A stretch of 64,000 nucleotides of DNA, taken from contig NZ_CP042997.1 in NCBI RefSeq assembly GCF_008087625.1, forward strand, positions 4,774,001 through 4,838,000, given 5' to 3'. This DNA comes from Aquisphaera giovannonii. GTDB lineage: Bacteria > Planctomycetota > Planctomycetia > Isosphaerales > Isosphaeraceae. The notes beneath the pieces are model-generated. The model saw only the letters and a list, made by a program, of their open reading frames with translations, was not told where the DNA came from and did no database searches. Each line of letters starts with the position of its first letter. Position 1 is the stretch's first letter. The position numbers and the translations under genes are program-made. Below, one piece after another: positions 29,119 to 39,878 of this stretch.

Positions 29119-30885
29119 TTAGAGGGTCCGCAGGTGGGCGAGCAGGTCGTGCAGCTCGGAATCCGCGAGGCTCACGCCGGGCGGGTGCTTGTGTTCGGAG
29201 AAGACGGCCTCGAGCGAGCCGGCACGGCCGTCGTGGAGGAACCGGGTCCGCTGGGCCACGCCGCGGAGCGAGGGCGGGTTGAACGCGCGGTTGCCGACGT
29301 CGTCGACGAGGCCCACGTCCTTCACCCCGTCCGACGTCAACGCCTCTCCGGCGTGGCAATTCGCGCACTTCTTCGAGCGGAAGACCAGGGCGCCGCGGTC
29401 CGCCGCCTCGCGAGGGGCGGCCGGCGGGGGCGGGGGCCGGAGCGACCGCACGTAGGCGGCCAGGTCGGCGACGTCCCCGTCATCCAGGGGCTTGCCGCGC
29501 ATCGTCGTCTCGATCGAGAAGCGGGCCTGGTCCTCGAGCGTCCCGAAATTGCCGAGCCAGCCCCATGGCCCGGTCGCCCCGGCCCCGAGCAGCGACGGGA
29601 CGAGCTTCGGGGCGCCGTAGGACTTGTCCCCGAAGGTGTCCACCGCGAAGCCGCCGGTATGCCCCTCCGCGTGGCAGCTCCGGCAGCTCATCCAGCCGTG
29701 GTGCGACAGCCGGGCGGAGTTGAAGAGCCGCTCTCCACGCTCGATGGCCGTCGGCCCGGGCCGCGGGCCGAGCGACGCCACTCGCCCCGCGCCGCCCCCC
29801 AGCGGCACGATCGCCACGGAATCCTCCTCGACGTCGGCGACGAAGGCGAGATCTCGCCTGGAATCGACGACGACCGCGGACGGGCGGGTCCCGGCCGGGA
29901 CGCGGACGATCGGCGAGGCGCGATCGCCGAGGACCGCGACCTCCCCCACGCCCGCGAGCGCCACGACGATCCGCCCCTTCGGGTCGATGGCGAGGTCCTC
30001 GGGGTCCCCCGCGGCGTGGCCGACCTCGTCGAGGTCCCTCGACGACGATCCCCGGAGGATGTCCGCCGCGGGGTCGAGGATCGCGTCCGCCCGCAGGGAG
30101 AGGACCTGGTTCTTCATCAGGTCCCCCCAGTGCACGTCGTCGAAGCTCGACGTCGCGAGCCGGCTGGACAGCTGGCGGGCCAGGACGACCGCCGCCCCGC
30201 CGTCCGCGATCGCCAAGCCCCGGAGGTTGTGGCCGGGGACCTCGCGGACGGACGCGATCGTGCCCCCGGCCGGGTCGACGACCGCGAGCCTGCCCCCGAA
30301 GGCGTCGGCCACGAGCAGGGCCTTGCCCTCGCGGAGCGGGAGGACCTCGCGAGGCGGGAAAAGGAGATCGATCGATCGGCGGAGCCGCAGGGCCCCCTCG
30401 CCCCCTCCCGGCCCGATGTCCACGATCGCGAGCCGCCGGCCCCATCGCGAGGCGACCGCGCAGGCCTGCCCGCCGGGCAGGATCGCGACGCGGATCGGGT
30501 CGGGGCCCACGCCCAATCGCGCCTTCACCGCAAGCCGCCCGGCGCGATGCTCCAGGAGCAGAAGCTCGCCGGCCTCCGGGTCGACCGCGGCGAACCGGAG
30601 GCCGTCCCCGAGCGGGGCGAGGTCGCCCAGGGCGCGGGCGACGGGATGCTCGGCGACCCGCGTCGCGGACGGGACGTCGATCTCGCTGATCGTGCCCGAC
30701 CGCCCGTTCGCGACCAGGAGCGCGGCCCCGTCGCCGGAAAGGGCGAGGGCGACGGGCCGGCGAGCCCGAGCTGCTGGCGCCTCGCCCGTCGCATGATCCT
30801 CCGCGGCGGACCCGCCCGACGCGATCGCGACCGTCGCGAGCACGAGGCCGAGGGCCGGCATGCCATTCTTCACGGCGGTCGTCAT
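29119..30885 (-). CDS. Exported beta-propeller protein with di-heme cytochrome c peroxidase-like domain
   Basis: A 588-residue protein. A signal peptide (about residues 1-28) is followed by a YVTN-like beta-propeller (PVALALSGDGAALLVANGRS, GKALLVADAFGGRLAVVD, RRDLAFVADVEEDSVAIVPL). From about residue 395 a cytochrome region carries two heme c motifs, CRSCH and CANCH, with ERGERLFNSARL and GALVFRSKKC before them, as in MauG/CcpA-type proteins. It would act in the periplasm in electron transfer or peroxide reduction. Its ATG (30885) overlaps the TGA of the upstream S41-like gene (ATGA), so the two form an operon. Confidence 0.85.
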   Translation of the reverse strand: MTTAVKNGMPALGLVLATVAIASGGSAAEDHATGEAPAARARRPVALALSGDGAALLVANGRSGTISEIDVPSATRVAEHPVARALGDLAPLGDGLRFAAVDPEAGELLLLEHRAGRLAVKARLGVGPDPIRVAILPGGQACAVASRWGRRLAIVDIGPGGGEGALRLRRSIDLLFPPREVLPLREGKALLVADAFGGRLAVVDPAGGTIASVREVPGHNLRGLAIADGGAAVVLARQLSSRLATSSFDDVHWGDLMKNQVLSLRADAILDPAADILRGSSSRDLDEVGHAAGDPEDLAIDPKGRIVVALAGVGEVAVLGDRASPIVRVPAGTRPSAVVVDSRRDLAFVADVEEDSVAIVPLGGGAGRVASLGPRPGPTAIERGERLFNSARLSHHGWMSCRSCHAEGHTGGFAVDTFGDKSYGAPKLVPSLLGAGATGPWGWLGNFGTLEDQARFSIETTMRGKPLDDGDVADLAAYVRSLRPPPPPAAPREAADRGALVFRSKKCANCHAGEALTSDGVKDVGLVDDVGNRAFNPPSLRGVAQRTRFLHDGRAGSLEAVFSEHKHPPGVSLADSELHDLLAHLRTL

Positions 30886-32441
30886 CCGGAGCCCCTCCCG
30901 TCGGCCGCAGGGACCTTCGCCTCGCCGCCTCGGCGGGCGGTCGCCGGCTCCTGGAGCGCCTTGCCGAGGACATCCATCGCCGCCCTGAGCGGACCGTCCC
31001 CGGCCCGGCCACCGGCCCCGTTCCCGGCTTGGCGAGCCGGCGGGACGGCGACGTCGGGCGTCACGCCGAGGCCCGCGTCCGGCCGCCGCGAGTCGGGCGG
31101 CTCATCGCCGAACGGCAGTCCGGCCCTGTTGGCCGGGGTGAAGTAGCCGATGGGCCGGCCGTCCGGCCACTCCAGGAGGCCCGTCACGAGGCTCGCCGTG
31201 CGGCCTCCATCGCCGAGGGGGATCGTGGACCGCGAGGCGCCGAGTCCGGCGGTGGCGGCTCCGACGATCGTGGCCCGCCCGTTCGCCTTCAGCGCGGCGG
31301 CGAGCCACTCGGCGTGATCCGAGGTCCCGCCATCGACGAGGACGGCCATCGGCCAGCCGGGGAACACCGAGCCCGGCTCCGCGCGGTAGGTCACCTCGCG
31401 CGAGGCGGTCCGGAGCCGGCCGATCGTGCCGGAATCCAGGAACTCGTCGGCGAGGAGCACCGCCGGGTGGCCCCCCGCGGAGTCCGGGCCGCGGGGCATC
31501 TGCCGCAGGTCGATCACCACGGCCTTCAGGCCCTCGGCCTCCATCTTCGCGGCGGCCTCCCGCACCTCGCGGGGGGTGCTCGCCAGGATCTCCTGGATCT
31601 TGAGGTAGCCGATGGGCCCCGCCCCCGCGACCCGGAAGCTCCCCGGTTCGGCGGCCCCGGGGCTCGGGCCGGGCTTCGTCGCCCCGGAACCGAAGCCCTT
31701 CGGCCCCGCGGGCCCGGAGATCGTGGCGTGGCGCATCGCCTCGCGGACCATGCGGAAGGTCCGGGGCTCCTTCTCGCCGGCCCGGCGGACGGCTACGGTC
31801 ACGGGCGTCCCCTCCTCGCCCCGGAGCCTGTCGATGTACTCGGCGAGCGTCAGTCCGCCGAGGGGCTCGCCGTCCACGGCCTCGATCACGTCCCCTTCCT
31901 TCATCCCCGCGCGCTGGGCCGGGCCCCCATCGAGGACGCCGTTCACCCTGGGGCGCTTCGTCTTCTCGTCCAGCGACACCGAGATCTGGATGCCGACGTA
32001 GCGGTTCCCCGCGATCTGCGCGGCCACCTTGCTCTCCTTGGCCTCCATGATCGCGAGCCCGCCGGGCACGCTCGCGGAGACGCCGTCGAGGAAGGCCCGG
32101 TCCAGGGCCGCCTCGGTCGCGGCCGCCGCCCTCGGCTTCGGCCGCACCATCTCCAGCAGCCCGGCGAACTGCTCGTACGTGGTGCGTTCGGAGATCTCCC
32201 TGCTGAGGCCGTCCGGCGTCGGCACCCTGACCGCGCGGTACATGGCGATGATCCCGGCGTGGAGCATCTGCTGCCGGGTCGGGGCCTCGACGTGATGGGC
32301 CTGCACCGCGTCGCAGAGGATGCGGAAGCGGTCCGCCAGGGACTCTCCGGGGGCGGCCAGGGCCGACGGCCCCGCCGCGAAGGTCAGGAATGCCAGGATC
32401 GCGCGTCGCACGTCACCCGTCTCCTGCTGGGGCACCGGCAT
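30882..32441 (-). CDS. S41 peptidase-like protein, predicted inactive
   Basis: A 519-residue exported protein; the start at 32441 gives MPVPQQETGDVRRAILAFL, and an internal GTG just before the hydrophobic stretch is an alternative. The order is that of carboxyl-terminal processing peptidases: helical N-domain, PDZ domain at about residues 150-225 (YVGIQISV, GGPAQRAGMKEGDVIEAVDG), then the tail-protease core (IGYLKIQEI, LKAVVIDLR). Where the family has G-T/S-A-S-A-S-E, this has GGTSDHAEW, placing Asp at the catalytic Ser. The usual GKxTFGK lysine segment reads GAATAGLGAS. It probably binds C-termini without cleaving. It is co-transcribed with the cytochrome gene. Confidence 0.78.
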   Translation of the reverse strand: MPVPQQETGDVRRAILAFLTFAAGPSALAAPGESLADRFRILCDAVQAHHVEAPTRQQMLHAGIIAMYRAVRVPTPDGLSREISERTTYEQFAGLLEMVRPKPRAAAATEAALDRAFLDGVSASVPGGLAIMEAKESKVAAQIAGNRYVGIQISVSLDEKTKRPRVNGVLDGGPAQRAGMKEGDVIEAVDGEPLGGLTLAEYIDRLRGEEGTPVTVAVRRAGEKEPRTFRMVREAMRHATISGPAGPKGFGSGATKPGPSPGAAEPGSFRVAGAGPIGYLKIQEILASTPREVREAAAKMEAEGLKAVVIDLRQMPRGPDSAGGHPAVLLADEFLDSGTIGRLRTASREVTYRAEPGSVFPGWPMAVLVDGGTSDHAEWLAAALKANGRATIVGAATAGLGASRSTIPLGDGGRTASLVTGLLEWPDGRPIGYFTPANRAGLPFGDEPPDSRRPDAGLGVTPDVAVPPARQAGNGAGGRAGDGPLRAAMDVLGKALQEPATARRGGEAKVPAADGRGSG

Positions 32442-32634: not shown

Positions 32635-33939
32635 ATGCCTGATCTACGCGACGGCGAGACCGTGGAGATGAAGGGCTCGGGGGCGAGGCCCTACATCCTG
32701 AAGAACACCGGGGGCGTCTACTCCTGCTCCTGCCCGGCCTGGCGCAACCAGTCGATCGCGATCGAGTCGCGGACGTGCAAGCACCTGAGGAAGCTGCGCG
32801 GGGACGCGGCCGAGGAGGCGCGCGTCGGGACCGCCCCCGCGCCGAGGCCCGAACCCGGGGCGGACGGGGGCGAGGCGAAGGCCGGCCCGCCGCTCCTGCT
32901 GGCCGAGTCGTGGGACAACGCCCAGGACCTGGCCGGCTGGTGGATGAGCGAGAAGCTCGACGGCGTCCGGGCGTACTGGGACGGCATTCGGCTGGTCTCG
33001 CGGCTCGGCAACCCGTTCCATGCGCCCGACTGGTTCCTCGAAGGGTTCCCCGAGACGCCCCTCGACGGCGAGCTGTGGATCGGCCGGAAGCAGTTCCAGA
33101 GGACCGTCGGGATCGTCCGCCGGCAGGACCGGAGCGACCACTGGAAGGAGGTCTCGTACGTGGCCTTCGACGCCCCGGCGTTTGGCGGCCCGTTCGAGGC
33201 GAGGATCGCCGCCGTCCGGGGCCACGTCGTGAGCCGTCGCCCGCCCCACCTACGCGCCCACGAGCACGCCGTCTGCGAGGGGATCGAGCACCTCCGCGCC
33301 GAGCTGGCGCGGGTCGAGGCCCTGGGAGGCGAGGGCCTCATGCTGCGGCAGCCGGCGTCGGCCTACGAGGTCGGACGCTCGATCACCCTCCTCAAGGTCA
33401 AGAGCTTCCTCGACGCCGAGGCCCGCGTCCTGGAGCACCTGCCGGGCGCCGGGCGGCACAAGGGCCGGCTCGGGGCCCTGCTCGTCGAGCTGGCCGACGG
33501 GACGAAGTTCTCGGTGGGCACCGGGTTCTCGGACGCCGAGCGCGAGCGGCCGCCGGCCGTCGGGTCGCTGATCACGTTCCGCTACCAGGAGCTGTCCGAC
33601 GGCGGCGTCCCCCGTTTCCCGTCGTTCCTGGGCGTGCGGGAGGACGTCGCCGCGCCCTCGACGCTGGTGACGACCGCGGCCCCGCCCGCGGCCGTTGCCG
33701 CGACGGTCACGGCCGCGGTCACCGCCCCGTCGGATCGCCGCCGATTCGAGCTGGTCGAGGGCGGCTCGGCGAAGTTCTGGGAGGTGGCGCGGGCCGGCCG
33801 CGAGGTCACCGTCCGCTACGGGCGGATCGGGACGGACGGGCAGGCGAAGGCGAAGACGCTCCCCGATGAGGCCGCGGCCCTCCGCCACGTCGAGGGGCTC
33901 GTCCGGGAGAAGACGGGCAAGGGGTATGCGGAGGTCTGA
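32635..33939 (+). CDS. ATP-dependent DNA ligase-like protein with SWIM zinc finger and WGR domain
   Basis: A 434-residue protein; ATG 32635 follows GAGGGCGG. Residues 25-55 form a SWIM zinc finger (C31-S-C33 ... C48-K-H50). Residues about 85-300 are a nucleotidyltransferase with the ligase motif SEKLDGVRAYW (lysine K107 would be adenylylated), LDGELWIG, and motif V LLKVKSFLD. An OB-like region follows (SVGTGFSDAERERPP, GSLITFRYQEL). Residues about 365-434 are a WGR domain (FWEVARAGREVTVRYGRIG), which in PARP-like proteins binds DNA breaks. The combination suggests a nick- or break-sealing enzyme that brings its own DNA-end sensors. It is a lone gene with no Ku or LigD nearby. Confidence 0.88.
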   Translation: MPDLRDGETVEMKGSGARPYILKNTGGVYSCSCPAWRNQSIAIESRTCKHLRKLRGDAAEEARVGTAPAPRPEPGADGGEAKAGPPLLLAESWDNAQDLAGWWMSEKLDGVRAYWDGIRLVSRLGNPFHAPDWFLEGFPETPLDGELWIGRKQFQRTVGIVRRQDRSDHWKEVSYVAFDAPAFGGPFEARIAAVRGHVVSRRPPHLRAHEHAVCEGIEHLRAELARVEALGGEGLMLRQPASAYEVGRSITLLKVKSFLDAEARVLEHLPGAGRHKGRLGALLVELADGTKFSVGTGFSDAERERPPAVGSLITFRYQELSDGGVPRFPSFLGVREDVAAPSTLVTTAAPPAAVAATVTAAVTAPSDRRRFELVEGGSAKFWEVARAGREVTVRYGRIGTDGQAKAKTLPDEAAALRHVEGLVREKTGKGYAEV

Positions 33940-33982
33940 ACGACGATCGGTCAATCGCCCCGGATGATGCGTCCCTGCGCCA

Positions 33983-34193
33983 GCCGCCGCGGGAACAACG
34001 ATGTCGGTGAGGGGTCAGCCCCGGGTGAGCCGAGGCCTAGAGGCCGAGCCGCGTGAGATTCGCCGGCCGCGTGGGAGCCGGCTCCGCCCGGCGACCGGCT
34101 GAGCCGTGTCGGCCAAGGTCAACCTCGGTCGCCGGGCGGAGCCGGCTCCCACGCGGCCGGCCCCGCGCCGACATCGTTATTCCCCCGGCGGCT
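33983..34193. repeat. Large palindromic element, family E
   Basis: Outer arms of about 25 bp (GCCGCCGCGGGAACAACG... and its complement ...CGTTATTCCCCCGGCGGC) enclose a perfect 35-bp inverted repeat at 34063-34097 and 34126-34160. Such a structure can form a long cruciform. No ORF inside is credible. The remaining sequence up to 34473 is the leader of the DUF1501 gene. Confidence 0.7.
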
Positions 34194-34473
34194 TAACCGG
34201 ATGCCCATGCGTCCGCGCCCCGCATAACGCACCGCCCCCCGCCGTGCCGCCGCGAATAATCCCGCCGAGCCGGACTTTTCCCTAGCCGAGGCGGCTACCC
34301 GGGGAATATCCTCGCAGGGGCCGGGTCGACCTCGATATGCGCCCGCCGGACGATGCCCACCACGCCTCGGTCCTCGACGCTCGATCAAGCGGGTAAACGT
34401 GCGGACCCCGCGAGCGGGCCGGCGGCCCTGGTGTGCCGAGGTCGCGCCGACGGCCTGGAACCGGAGCTCTCCC

Positions 34474-35850
34474 ATGCTGACGTTCACCGGAAGGGGCCGG
34501 GCCACGACGTGCGACGGCGTGACCCGCCGCGACTTCCTCCAGGCCGGCACGCTCGGGGCCCTCGGGTTCGGGCTCCCGCACTGGTTCGCGGCCCGGGCGG
34601 CGGGCGCGGTCCGGCCGGGGATCGACGACCGAGCGTGCATCATGATCTTCAACCTCGGCGCCCCGAGCAGCATGGACCTCTGGGACATGAAGCCCGACGC
34701 CCCCGCCGAGGTCCGCGGGCCGTTCAGGCCGATCGCGACGGCCTCGCCGGCGATCCAGGTCTCCGAGATCCTCCCCCGGCACGCCGCGATCGCCGACAAG
34801 TTCTCGCTCGTGCGGTCGGTCCACCACGGCGGCGCGGCGGTGCACGACGCCGGCTGGCAGATGATGCAGACCGGCCGGCTCTTCGCGGGGGGCGTCAACA
34901 CCCCGCACGTCGGCTCCGTCGTCAGCTACCTGCGGGGTCGGAAGACCGACCTGCCCCCCTTCGTGGTGCTGCCGGAGCTGATGGGCCGCGGCGGCGGCAA
35001 CCTCCCCAACGGCCAGGCCGGCGGCTTCCTCGGCAAGGCCCAGGACCCGTTCGCCCTGAACGCCGACCCGTCGAAGCCCGGCTTCCGCGTCCCCGACCTG
35101 CTGCCCCCCGAGACGATCGGCACCGTCCGGCTGGACCGCCGCCGCAAGATCCGGGCGCTCGTGGACGACGCCGTCTCCACCTTCGAGGCGTCGGAGGACG
35201 CCTCGCTGCTGGACGGCAACTTCCAGTCGGCCTTCCGCCTGATGACGAGCGCCCAGGCCCGCGACGCGTTCGACCTGTCGAAGGAGCCCGCGTCCGTCCG
35301 CGACCGCTACGGCATGACCCGGTTCGGCCAGTGCTGCCTGCTGGCGAGGCGGCTCGTGGAGAGCGGCGTGCGGTTCGTGACGATCAACACGTTCCTGACC
35401 GTCTTCGACGAGATCACCTGGGACATCCACGGGTCGAAGCCGTTCACCTCGATCGAGGGCATGCGCGACATCGTCTGCCCGCTATACGACCGGGCCTACA
35501 GCGCCCTGATCGAGGACCTCTCGGGCCGCGGGATGCTCGACACGACGCTCGTCTGCAACCTCGCCGAGTTCGGCCGCACGCCCCGCGTGAACCCGGCCGG
35601 CGGCCGCGACCACTGGCCGAACTGCTTCACCGTGGGCTTCGCCGGCGGCGGCGTGCAGGGGGGCCGGGTGGTCGGCGCCAGCGACCCCATCGGCGCCGTG
35701 CCGGCCGACCGCCCCGTCGAGCCGGCCGACATCGCCGCGACGATCTTCCACAGCCTGGGCCTCGACCTCGAGGCCAAGCTCCCCGGCCCCGCCGGGAGGC
35801 CGTTCCCGCTGGTCGACTTCGGCCATCGGGAGATCCGGGAGCTCTTCTGA
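34474..35850 (+). CDS. DUF1501 family exported protein (cassette 1)
   Basis: A 458-residue protein; ATG 34474 has GGAG 8 nt upstream. The N-terminus carries a twin-arginine signal (TRRDFLQAGTLGALGFGL). The sulfatase-like DUF1501 body follows: IMIFNLGAPSSMDLWDMKP, KFSLVRSVHHGG, GMTRFGQCCLLARRLVESGV, LVCNLAEFGRTPRVN and GRDHWPNCF. The family is abundant in planctomycetes and usually lies beside DUF1549/DUF1553 genes; the biochemical role is unknown, though its fold belongs to the alkaline phosphatase/sulfatase superfamily. The partner gene lies 1.5 kb downstream, separated by an IS110 element. Confidence 0.9.
   Translation: MLTFTGRGRATTCDGVTRRDFLQAGTLGALGFGLPHWFAARAAGAVRPGIDDRACIMIFNLGAPSSMDLWDMKPDAPAEVRGPFRPIATASPAIQVSEILPRHAAIADKFSLVRSVHHGGAAVHDAGWQMMQTGRLFAGGVNTPHVGSVVSYLRGRKTDLPPFVVLPELMGRGGGNLPNGQAGGFLGKAQDPFALNADPSKPGFRVPDLLPPETIGTVRLDRRRKIRALVDDAVSTFEASEDASLLDGNFQSAFRLMTSAQARDAFDLSKEPASVRDRYGMTRFGQCCLLARRLVESGVRFVTINTFLTVFDEITWDIHGSKPFTSIEGMRDIVCPLYDRAYSALIEDLSGRGMLDTTLVCNLAEFGRTPRVNPAGGRDHWPNCFTVGFAGGGVQGGRVVGASDPIGAVPADRPVEPADIAATIFHSLGLDLEAKLPGPAGRPFPLVDFGHREIRELF

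Positions 35851-36081: not shown

Positions 36082-39878
<3,797 letters not shown>

What the first reader, a model, noticed from the sequence alone, without database searches (positions are those of the whole stretch)
32635..33939. SWIM finger, DNA ligase core and WGR domain in one short protein
The adenylation lysine K107 is present. The protein carries two DNA-binding modules usually found in separate repair proteins; WGR is best known from PARPs. It may be a stand-alone single-strand break sensor and sealer.
Basis: partly seen in the sequence, partly recalled or inferred. Interest (0 to 1): 0.5.

Follow-up and report, generated by a model that had tools for sequence, protein, structure and literature searches.

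The report
Lig E ligase with SWIM and WGR
A planctomycete-type bacterium encodes a small DNA-nick-sealing enzyme with a zinc-finger-like module at one end and a domain known from DNA-break sensors at the other; the core enzyme is known, but this many-domain form may link finding DNA breaks with sealing them.

Summary
[quoted passage not shown] The core is 42-43% identical to three solved Lig E enzymes. Pfam scores SWIM below its cut-off, but the four putative metal ligands are invariant in 87 of 87 distinct bacterial sequences, the window's included, and a profile comparison with four other SWIM domains of the same genome gives 95.8%.

It belongs to a patchy clade in Planctomycetota, Verrucomicrobiota, Myxococcota, Obscuribacterales and large phages. 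SWIM is nearly constant; WGR comes and goes (60 of 87 bacterial sequences, 0 of 11 viral loci), with one to five copies. Classical Lig E mostly carries an export signal (PMC6144786, passages); a crude test found none here (0 of 87). One relative, L062 (a single metagenome bin), carries a complete WGR-PARP module in the same frame. Best reading: a cytoplasmic accessory ligase sealing 5'-phosphorylated nicks, gripping DNA with SWIM and WGR. Catalysis is well supported by sequence; break sensing is inferred. New variant of a known kind.

The parts
32635..33939 (+). gene for the SWIM - Lig E - WGR protein, 434 aa plus stop
32635..32832 (+). N-terminal SWIM-type module, residues 1-66
   Evidence: hhalign 95.8% against SWIM domains; Pfam SWIM sub-threshold; AlphaFold2 pLDDT about 87; no significant PDB fold match
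32725..32784 (+). CxC-x14-CxH motif, C31 to H50, putative zinc ligands
   Evidence: four ligands invariant in 87 of 87 sequences
32890..33402 (+). ligase nucleotidyltransferase domain, residues 86-256, motifs I, III, IIIa, IV, V
   Evidence: Pfam DNA_ligase_A_M; NCBIfam NF006592 332 bits against cut-off 200; PDB 4d05, 6gdr, 8u6x
32953..32955 (+). codon of adenylation lysine K107
   Evidence: invariant in 87 of 87
33403..33645 (+). OB domain, residues 257-337
   Evidence: Pfam DNA_ligase_OB_2 at 270-335, 99.8 bits
33610..33639 (+). motif VI, PRFPSFLGVR, residues 326-335
   Evidence: R327 in 86 of 87, F328 and P329 in 87 of 87, R335 in 75 of 87
33646..33732 (+). Ala/Thr-rich linker, residues 338-366, predicted disordered
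   Evidence: pLDDT under 50 at 342-365
33733..33933 (+). WGR domain (YGR form at 395-397), residues 367-433
   Evidence: Pfam WGR 59.2 bits against cut-off 22; the only WGR found in the genome

Best explanation
The protein is a cytoplasmic, accessory ATP-dependent DNA ligase of Lig E type. Steps taken as shown by sequence: K107 and motifs I to VI form a complete ligase active site with an OB domain, so it should adenylate itself with ATP, transfer AMP to a 5'-phosphate at a nick and seal it. Inferred: bare Lig E grips DNA only partly, without added domains; here the N-terminal SWIM module and the C-terminal WGR domain on a flexible linker add DNA contacts on both sides, WGR preferring 5'-phosphorylated breaks as the WGR-containing PARP-2 and PARP-3 do, so that the enzyme finds and seals nicks as a single polypeptide without a dedicated operon partner. 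The replicative NAD-dependent ligase and a LigD-type ligase are encoded elsewhere in the genome, so the role is auxiliary repair. The SWIM form probably circulates between large phages and bacteria, with WGR gained and lost in bacteria.
For: Lig E core: PDB 4d05 E 5e-65, 6gdr 1e-57, 8u6x 6e-56; NCBIfam NF006592; Foldseek on the model E 2e-29 to 1e-28, 42-43% identity. Catalytic residues K107, D109, G110, R112, E146, F178, E233, K254, K256 invariant in 87 of 87. SWIM by profile comparison and invariance. Check that does not start from SWIM: 7 of 294 genomes of the phylum have an OB_2 match over the cut-off, and those same 7 have the SWIM match, in one open frame in 5, on one contig in separate frames in 1, on different contigs in 1. 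No export-like N-terminus in 0 of 87 by a hydropathy proxy against 2 of 2 classical Lig E controls. Other ligases in the genome: one NAD-dependent ligase match and one further ATP-ligase match in an 835-codon frame. SWIM-Lig E in 11 of 80 viral loci examined and in a 485-kb phage record. Lig E lacks added domains and encircles DNA only partly: PMC6144786 (passages). PARP-2/-3 prefer 5'-phosphorylated nicks: PMC4081085 (passages). YGR instead of WGR is usual in bacterial PARPs: PMC5966428 (passages).
Against: No biochemistry. The window's WGR is closer to 2ra8 than to PARP WGR. 27 of 87 bacterial and all 11 viral SWIM-Lig E lack WGR, so WGR is not needed for the basic job. Foldseek finds no significant PDB match to the modelled SWIM module (best E 1.2). 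Lig E's DNA-binding motif GKGKF (PMC6144786) reads GAGRH here (271-275), so part of the Lig E grip is altered. The hydropathy test is crude and had two controls. Sampling: one search kept the best 80 of 185 relatives, so full-length, WGR-bearing relatives are favoured.
Confidence: 0.7

Rival explanations
1. An exported Lig E, as in proteobacteria, acting on extracellular or incoming DNA, with SWIM and WGR as extra grip.
For: The core is orthologous to Lig E, which is mostly predicted to be periplasmic (PMC6144786, PMC8455567, PMC10799422, passages).
Against: No hydrophobic N-terminal stretch in 0 of 87 sequences (highest 12-residue mean 0.99) against 2.09 and 2.12 in two classical Lig E. The conserved N-terminus is the SWIM module itself. 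Phages carry the SWIM form.
Confidence: 0.08
2. WGR (and SWIM) are protein-interaction or RNA-binding modules that place the ligase in a complex, not break sensors.
For: WGR occurs in many bacterial proteins unrelated to PARP (plasmid matches annotated DUF4132 and STM4015 family; 2ra8); WGR is dispensable in the family.
Against: Repeated association with a DNA ligase and, in L062, of a whole WGR-PARP module with the same ligase favours a DNA-break role.
Confidence: 0.3
3. A recently captured phage ligase without a cellular repair role.
For: SWIM-Lig E in phages, several of them on basal branches of the tree; patchy presence: 13 of 45 genomes of the order, 7 of 294 of the phylum.
Against: No prophage genes among the six neighbours scanned by Pfam; conserved catalytic residues over wide divergence; WGR only in the bacterial members.
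Confidence: 0.12

Closest known systems
Lig E (Psychromonas 4d05, Alteromonas 6gdr, Neisseria 8u6x; NCBIfam NF006592)
   Same: Catalytic and OB domains, all ligase motifs, 42-43% identity over about 250 residues.
   Different: Classical Lig E has no added domains and mostly a predicted export signal (PMC6144786, passages); this protein has SWIM and WGR and no export-like N-terminus.
WGR-bearing bacterial DNA ligases as a conserved-domain entry (recalled from the CDD text on WGR domains, not checked by any search)
   Same: WGR joined to a ligase.
   Different: I could not check whether that entry covers Lig E-type or SWIM-bearing proteins.
Lig E of bdelloid rotifers with PBZ zinc fingers (PMC10665377, passages)
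   Same: Lig E core with an added module tied to DNA-damage signalling; in the rotifer it is induced by radiation.
   Different: PBZ binds poly(ADP-ribose) and sits at the C-terminus; no SWIM or WGR is mentioned in that paper (0 occurrences).
PARP-2 / PARP-3 and bacterial PARPs
   Same: A WGR domain.
   Different: No PARP catalytic domain in the window protein; WGR nearer to other bacterial WGR. Relative L062 does have one.

Membership tests
Lig E ATP-dependent DNA ligases | DNA_ligase_A_M plus DNA_ligase_OB_2 core close to solved Lig E | tested here: met
Lig E ATP-dependent DNA ligases | adenylation lysine, motifs I-V and motif VI | tested here: met
   K107 etc. invariant in 87 of 87; motif VI R335 in 75 of 87
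Lig E ATP-dependent DNA ligases | Lig E DNA-binding motifs GKGKF and F-basic-IGSGFxD (PMC6144786) | tested here: inconclusive
   window has GAGRH (271-275) and FSVGTGFSD (292-300): only partly kept
Lig E ATP-dependent DNA ligases | no added domains (usual, not strict) | tested here: not met
   SWIM and WGR present; hence 'Lig E-type', a variant
Lig E ATP-dependent DNA ligases | N-terminal export signal (usual, 144 of 208 in PMC8455567) | tested here: not met
   hydropathy proxy 0 of 87 against 2 of 2 controls; no SignalP available
SWIM domain (PF04434) | CxC-x(n)-CxH ligands | tested here: met
   87 of 87
SWIM domain (PF04434) | score above the Pfam cut-off | tested here: not met
   9.6 against 19.6 bits; profile comparison 95.8%
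SWIM domain (PF04434) | zinc binding | not testable with these tools
   needs protein
WGR domain (PF05406) | score above the Pfam cut-off | tested here: met
   59.2 against 22 bits
PARP | PARP catalytic domain | tested here: not met
   absent from the window protein; present in relative L062

The most novel reading that the evidence does not exclude
SWIM-Lig E is an unrecognised class of intracellular break-repair ligases, shared by large phages and several bacterial phyla, that repeatedly acquires break-sensing modules at its C-terminus: WGR in one to five copies, and in one acidobacterial lineage a complete WGR-PARP, giving a single polypeptide that would signal (ADP-ribosylate) and seal DNA breaks.
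Probability: 0.3. Interest if true: 0.7.

Novelty: new variant of a known kind. Interest (0 to 1): 0.45.

Why it matters
Lig E is treated in the papers seen as a minimal, mostly proteobacterial and probably exported ligase. A clade with SWIM and WGR, without an export-like N-terminus and shared with large phages, would add an intracellular branch and a natural test of how a minimal ligase gains DNA grip by adding modules. If the ligase-PARP fusion is real, it would put in one bacterial protein two steps (break signalling and sealing) that human cells divide between proteins.

Tried and rejected
SWIM as a chance CxC/CxH pattern: rejected by invariance and hhalign, although Pfam alone and Foldseek do not show it. 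Conserved operon partner: in 81 loci (80 plus the window) the only widely shared neighbour cluster besides frames of the ligase itself was one that reads, by my eye, as a Ser/Thr protein kinase, in 18 loci, 12 of them one shared Myxococcaceae locus; others were confined to those 12 or to common planctomycete families such as DUF1501, 7 loci. Many loci are shorter than the full 6-kb flanks. Defence gene: no PADLOC match of the window protein at E 0.01; P0002 gave one weak one, WGR_XIII, E 0.006. More ligase-PARP fusions: PARP-type matches in 17 plasmid and 7 phage records, none of the listed plasmid records among the 19 with a ligase match; no viral contig; Pfam was run on 62 of the 87 sequences and found PARP in 1. 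Whether relatives of L062's genome share the fusion stayed open because the three searches failed. Literature: no paper in the held library joins the terms 'DNA ligase', 'WGR domain' and 'SWIM' or 'SWIM zinc finger' and 'DNA ligase'; searches listed nothing on such a ligase as far as titles and abstract starts show. Subscription papers, including the 2016 Lig E survey, are not held.

Full report
What is there. The frame at 32635-33939 (+) encodes 434 residues. Pfam finds the ligase catalytic domain, the Lig E/Chlorella-virus type OB domain and WGR, all above cut-off. NCBIfam's DNA ligase NF006592 scores 332 bits against a cut-off of 200. The best solved relatives are the three Lig E structures 4d05, 6gdr and 8u6x; the AlphaFold2 model (mean pLDDT 87.9, pTM 0.67) matches them first by Foldseek. 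Motifs I (EKLDGVR 106-112), III (DGEL), IIIa (YVAFDAP), IV (GGEGLMLR), V (LLKVK) and VI (PRFPSFLGVR) are in place (the motif names are standard ligase names, recalled).

The SWIM module. Pfam SWIM is the only family to touch residues 1-68, at 9.6 bits against a cut-off of 19.6, and just 1 of 56 aligned relatives shows it even at E up to 5. Three things speak for it: the CxC-x14-CxH ligands are invariant in 87 of 87 distinct bacterial sequences (the window's included); they are invariant in an alignment of 37 N-termini that includes six from phage-like contigs; and hhalign of that alignment with four Pfam-positive SWIM domains of the same genome gives 95.8%, P 7.5e-9, aligning the Cys and His ligands and the preceding GSGxxPY strand. 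Against: Foldseek finds no significant solved structure for the modelled module. I treat it as a divergent SWIM module.

The family. Of 99 loci gave an open frame matching at E 1e-20 and 87 were distinct. The other four loci (L015, L016, L017, L019) are fragments and were dropped. One search kept the best 80 of 185 relatives, so the set leans to full-length, close relatives. Members come from Planctomycetota, Verrucomicrobiota, Myxococcota, Obscuribacterales, Acidobacteriota and Riflebacteria bins (record titles). WGR was found in 60 of 87 by a HMMER search with the window's WGR and in 40 of 56 by Pfam; copies range up to five (L055), with three in L057 and two in L065, L067 and L094 by Pfam. 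Of 80 viral loci, 11 carry SWIM-Lig E (L151 and L193 look like one protein), none with WGR; 69 have Lig E without SWIM. A 485-kb phage record also has SWIM-Lig E without WGR. On a quick tree of 105 rows thinned from 167, SWIM needs 2 changes and WGR 15 among SWIM rows; only 20 of 102 inner branches are starred, starred branches force at least 4 changes for WGR, the branch between the SWIM and SWIM-less sides has 84% support, and no proteobacterial Lig E was included. So one origin of the SWIM form with later loss in L137 is the simplest reading, not a proven one.

Distribution. 13 of 45 genomes of the window's order have a match, one of them (G038) in broken pieces. In the phylum, 7 of 294 genomes have an OB_2 match over the cut-off and the same 7 have the SWIM match: one frame in 5, separate frames on one contig in 1, different contigs in 1. 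An eighth genome (G064) has only small SWIM proteins.

Location. Lig E is mostly predicted to be exported (PMC6144786 and PMC10799422, passages; PMC8455567, passages: 144 of 208). The highest mean hydropathy over 12 residues within the first 35 residues is 0.12 to 0.99 in the 87 sequences; two classical Lig E proteins fetched as controls give 2.09 and 2.12. This is a proxy with two controls; it depends on start sites that I set by alignment.

Context. The gene is flanked by a divergent S41 peptidase gene (30885-32441, -) and a DUF1501 gene (34399-35847, +). No neighbour is conserved across phyla apart from members of common families. The genome has one NAD-dependent ligase match, one further ATP-ligase match in an 835-codon frame (LigD-type is my inference) and no other WGR match.

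How it works. Bare Lig E binds nicked DNA without full encirclement and without added domains (PMC6144786, passages). PARP-2 and PARP-3, which share WGR, are activated best by 5'-phosphorylated nicks, the ligase substrate (PMC4081085, passages). The best reading is an intracellular nick-sealing ligase whose SWIM and WGR add grip and break preference. Shown by sequence: the catalytic apparatus and the two modules. Inferred: cytoplasmic place, DNA binding by SWIM, nick preference by WGR, repair role. The WGR here has YGR, the usual form in bacterial PARPs (PMC5966428, passages); of 67 WGR copies 23 have Y, 14 F and 9 W before GR, and 21 did not fit the pattern used. Yet by sequence it is nearer to 2ra8 than to PARP-1, so a PARP-like role is not established.

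The ligase-PARP relative. L062 (Thermoanaerobaculia bin Bin_89R) has one open frame with SWIM, Lig E core, WGR (43.9 bits), PARP regulatory (67.1) and PARP catalytic (96.7) domains; its C-terminal half matches human PARP4 at E 3e-47 and PARP-2 at 2e-24. Residues at the His-Tyr-Glu positions are present (LFHGSR, GIYFGD, DDEYVVYK; reading them as the triad is mine, the triad itself is named in PMC5966428). G+C is alike in both halves and flanks, which gives no sign of a chimeric contig. It is the only PARP match in that genome, and 1 of 14 genomes searched had any. Its WGR is not of the kind found in the other ligases, so a whole WGR-PARP unit was probably joined. It is a single metagenome bin; G338 is the same assembly, not a second witness.

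Comparison and novelty. It is a Lig E-type ligase in its core and a variant in its added domains and probable location. PMC8455567 (passages) counts fewer than 10 planctomycete or verrucomicrobial members among 208 Lig E sequences and does not mention SWIM or WGR. PMC10665377 (passages) describes rotifer Lig E with PBZ zinc fingers and radiation induction, an independent case of Lig E joined to a damage-signalling module. I recall that the conserved-domain literature mentions WGR in some bacterial ligases, so 'WGR plus ligase' alone is probably not new; no call shows it.

Noticed in passing
[quoted passage not shown]
   Followed up: partly
L055:6001-9489, L057:6001-8382: Obscuribacterales SWIM-Lig E proteins with five and three WGR domains.
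   Followed up: partly
L124-L130: Genome G064 (same phylum) holds seven matches to the SWIM part, mostly in small frames of about 90-150 codons (one of 258), reading SCTCPGWCRRVA..CKHVRKV where examined (5 of 7); apparently a multicopy stand-alone SWIM protein.
   Followed up: no
window 34062-34161: Perfect 36-nt inverted repeat with a 28-nt loop, nested in a longer imperfect one (33982-34193), downstream of the ligase gene; its core occurs once in the window. Terminator or mobile palindrome not decided.
   Followed up: no
window 36085-37353 (-): IS110-family transposase gene between a DUF1501 gene and a DUF1549/DUF1553 gene.
   Followed up: no
L073: Record titled Comamonas sp. KCTC 72670 carries a ligase nested among Myxococcaceae in the tree and shares their gene neighbourhood; the genome may be mislabelled.
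   Followed up: no
L132:9984-11387 (+): A phage-like contig with SWIM-Lig E also carries a nicotinamide phosphoribosyltransferase gene nearby.
   Followed up: no
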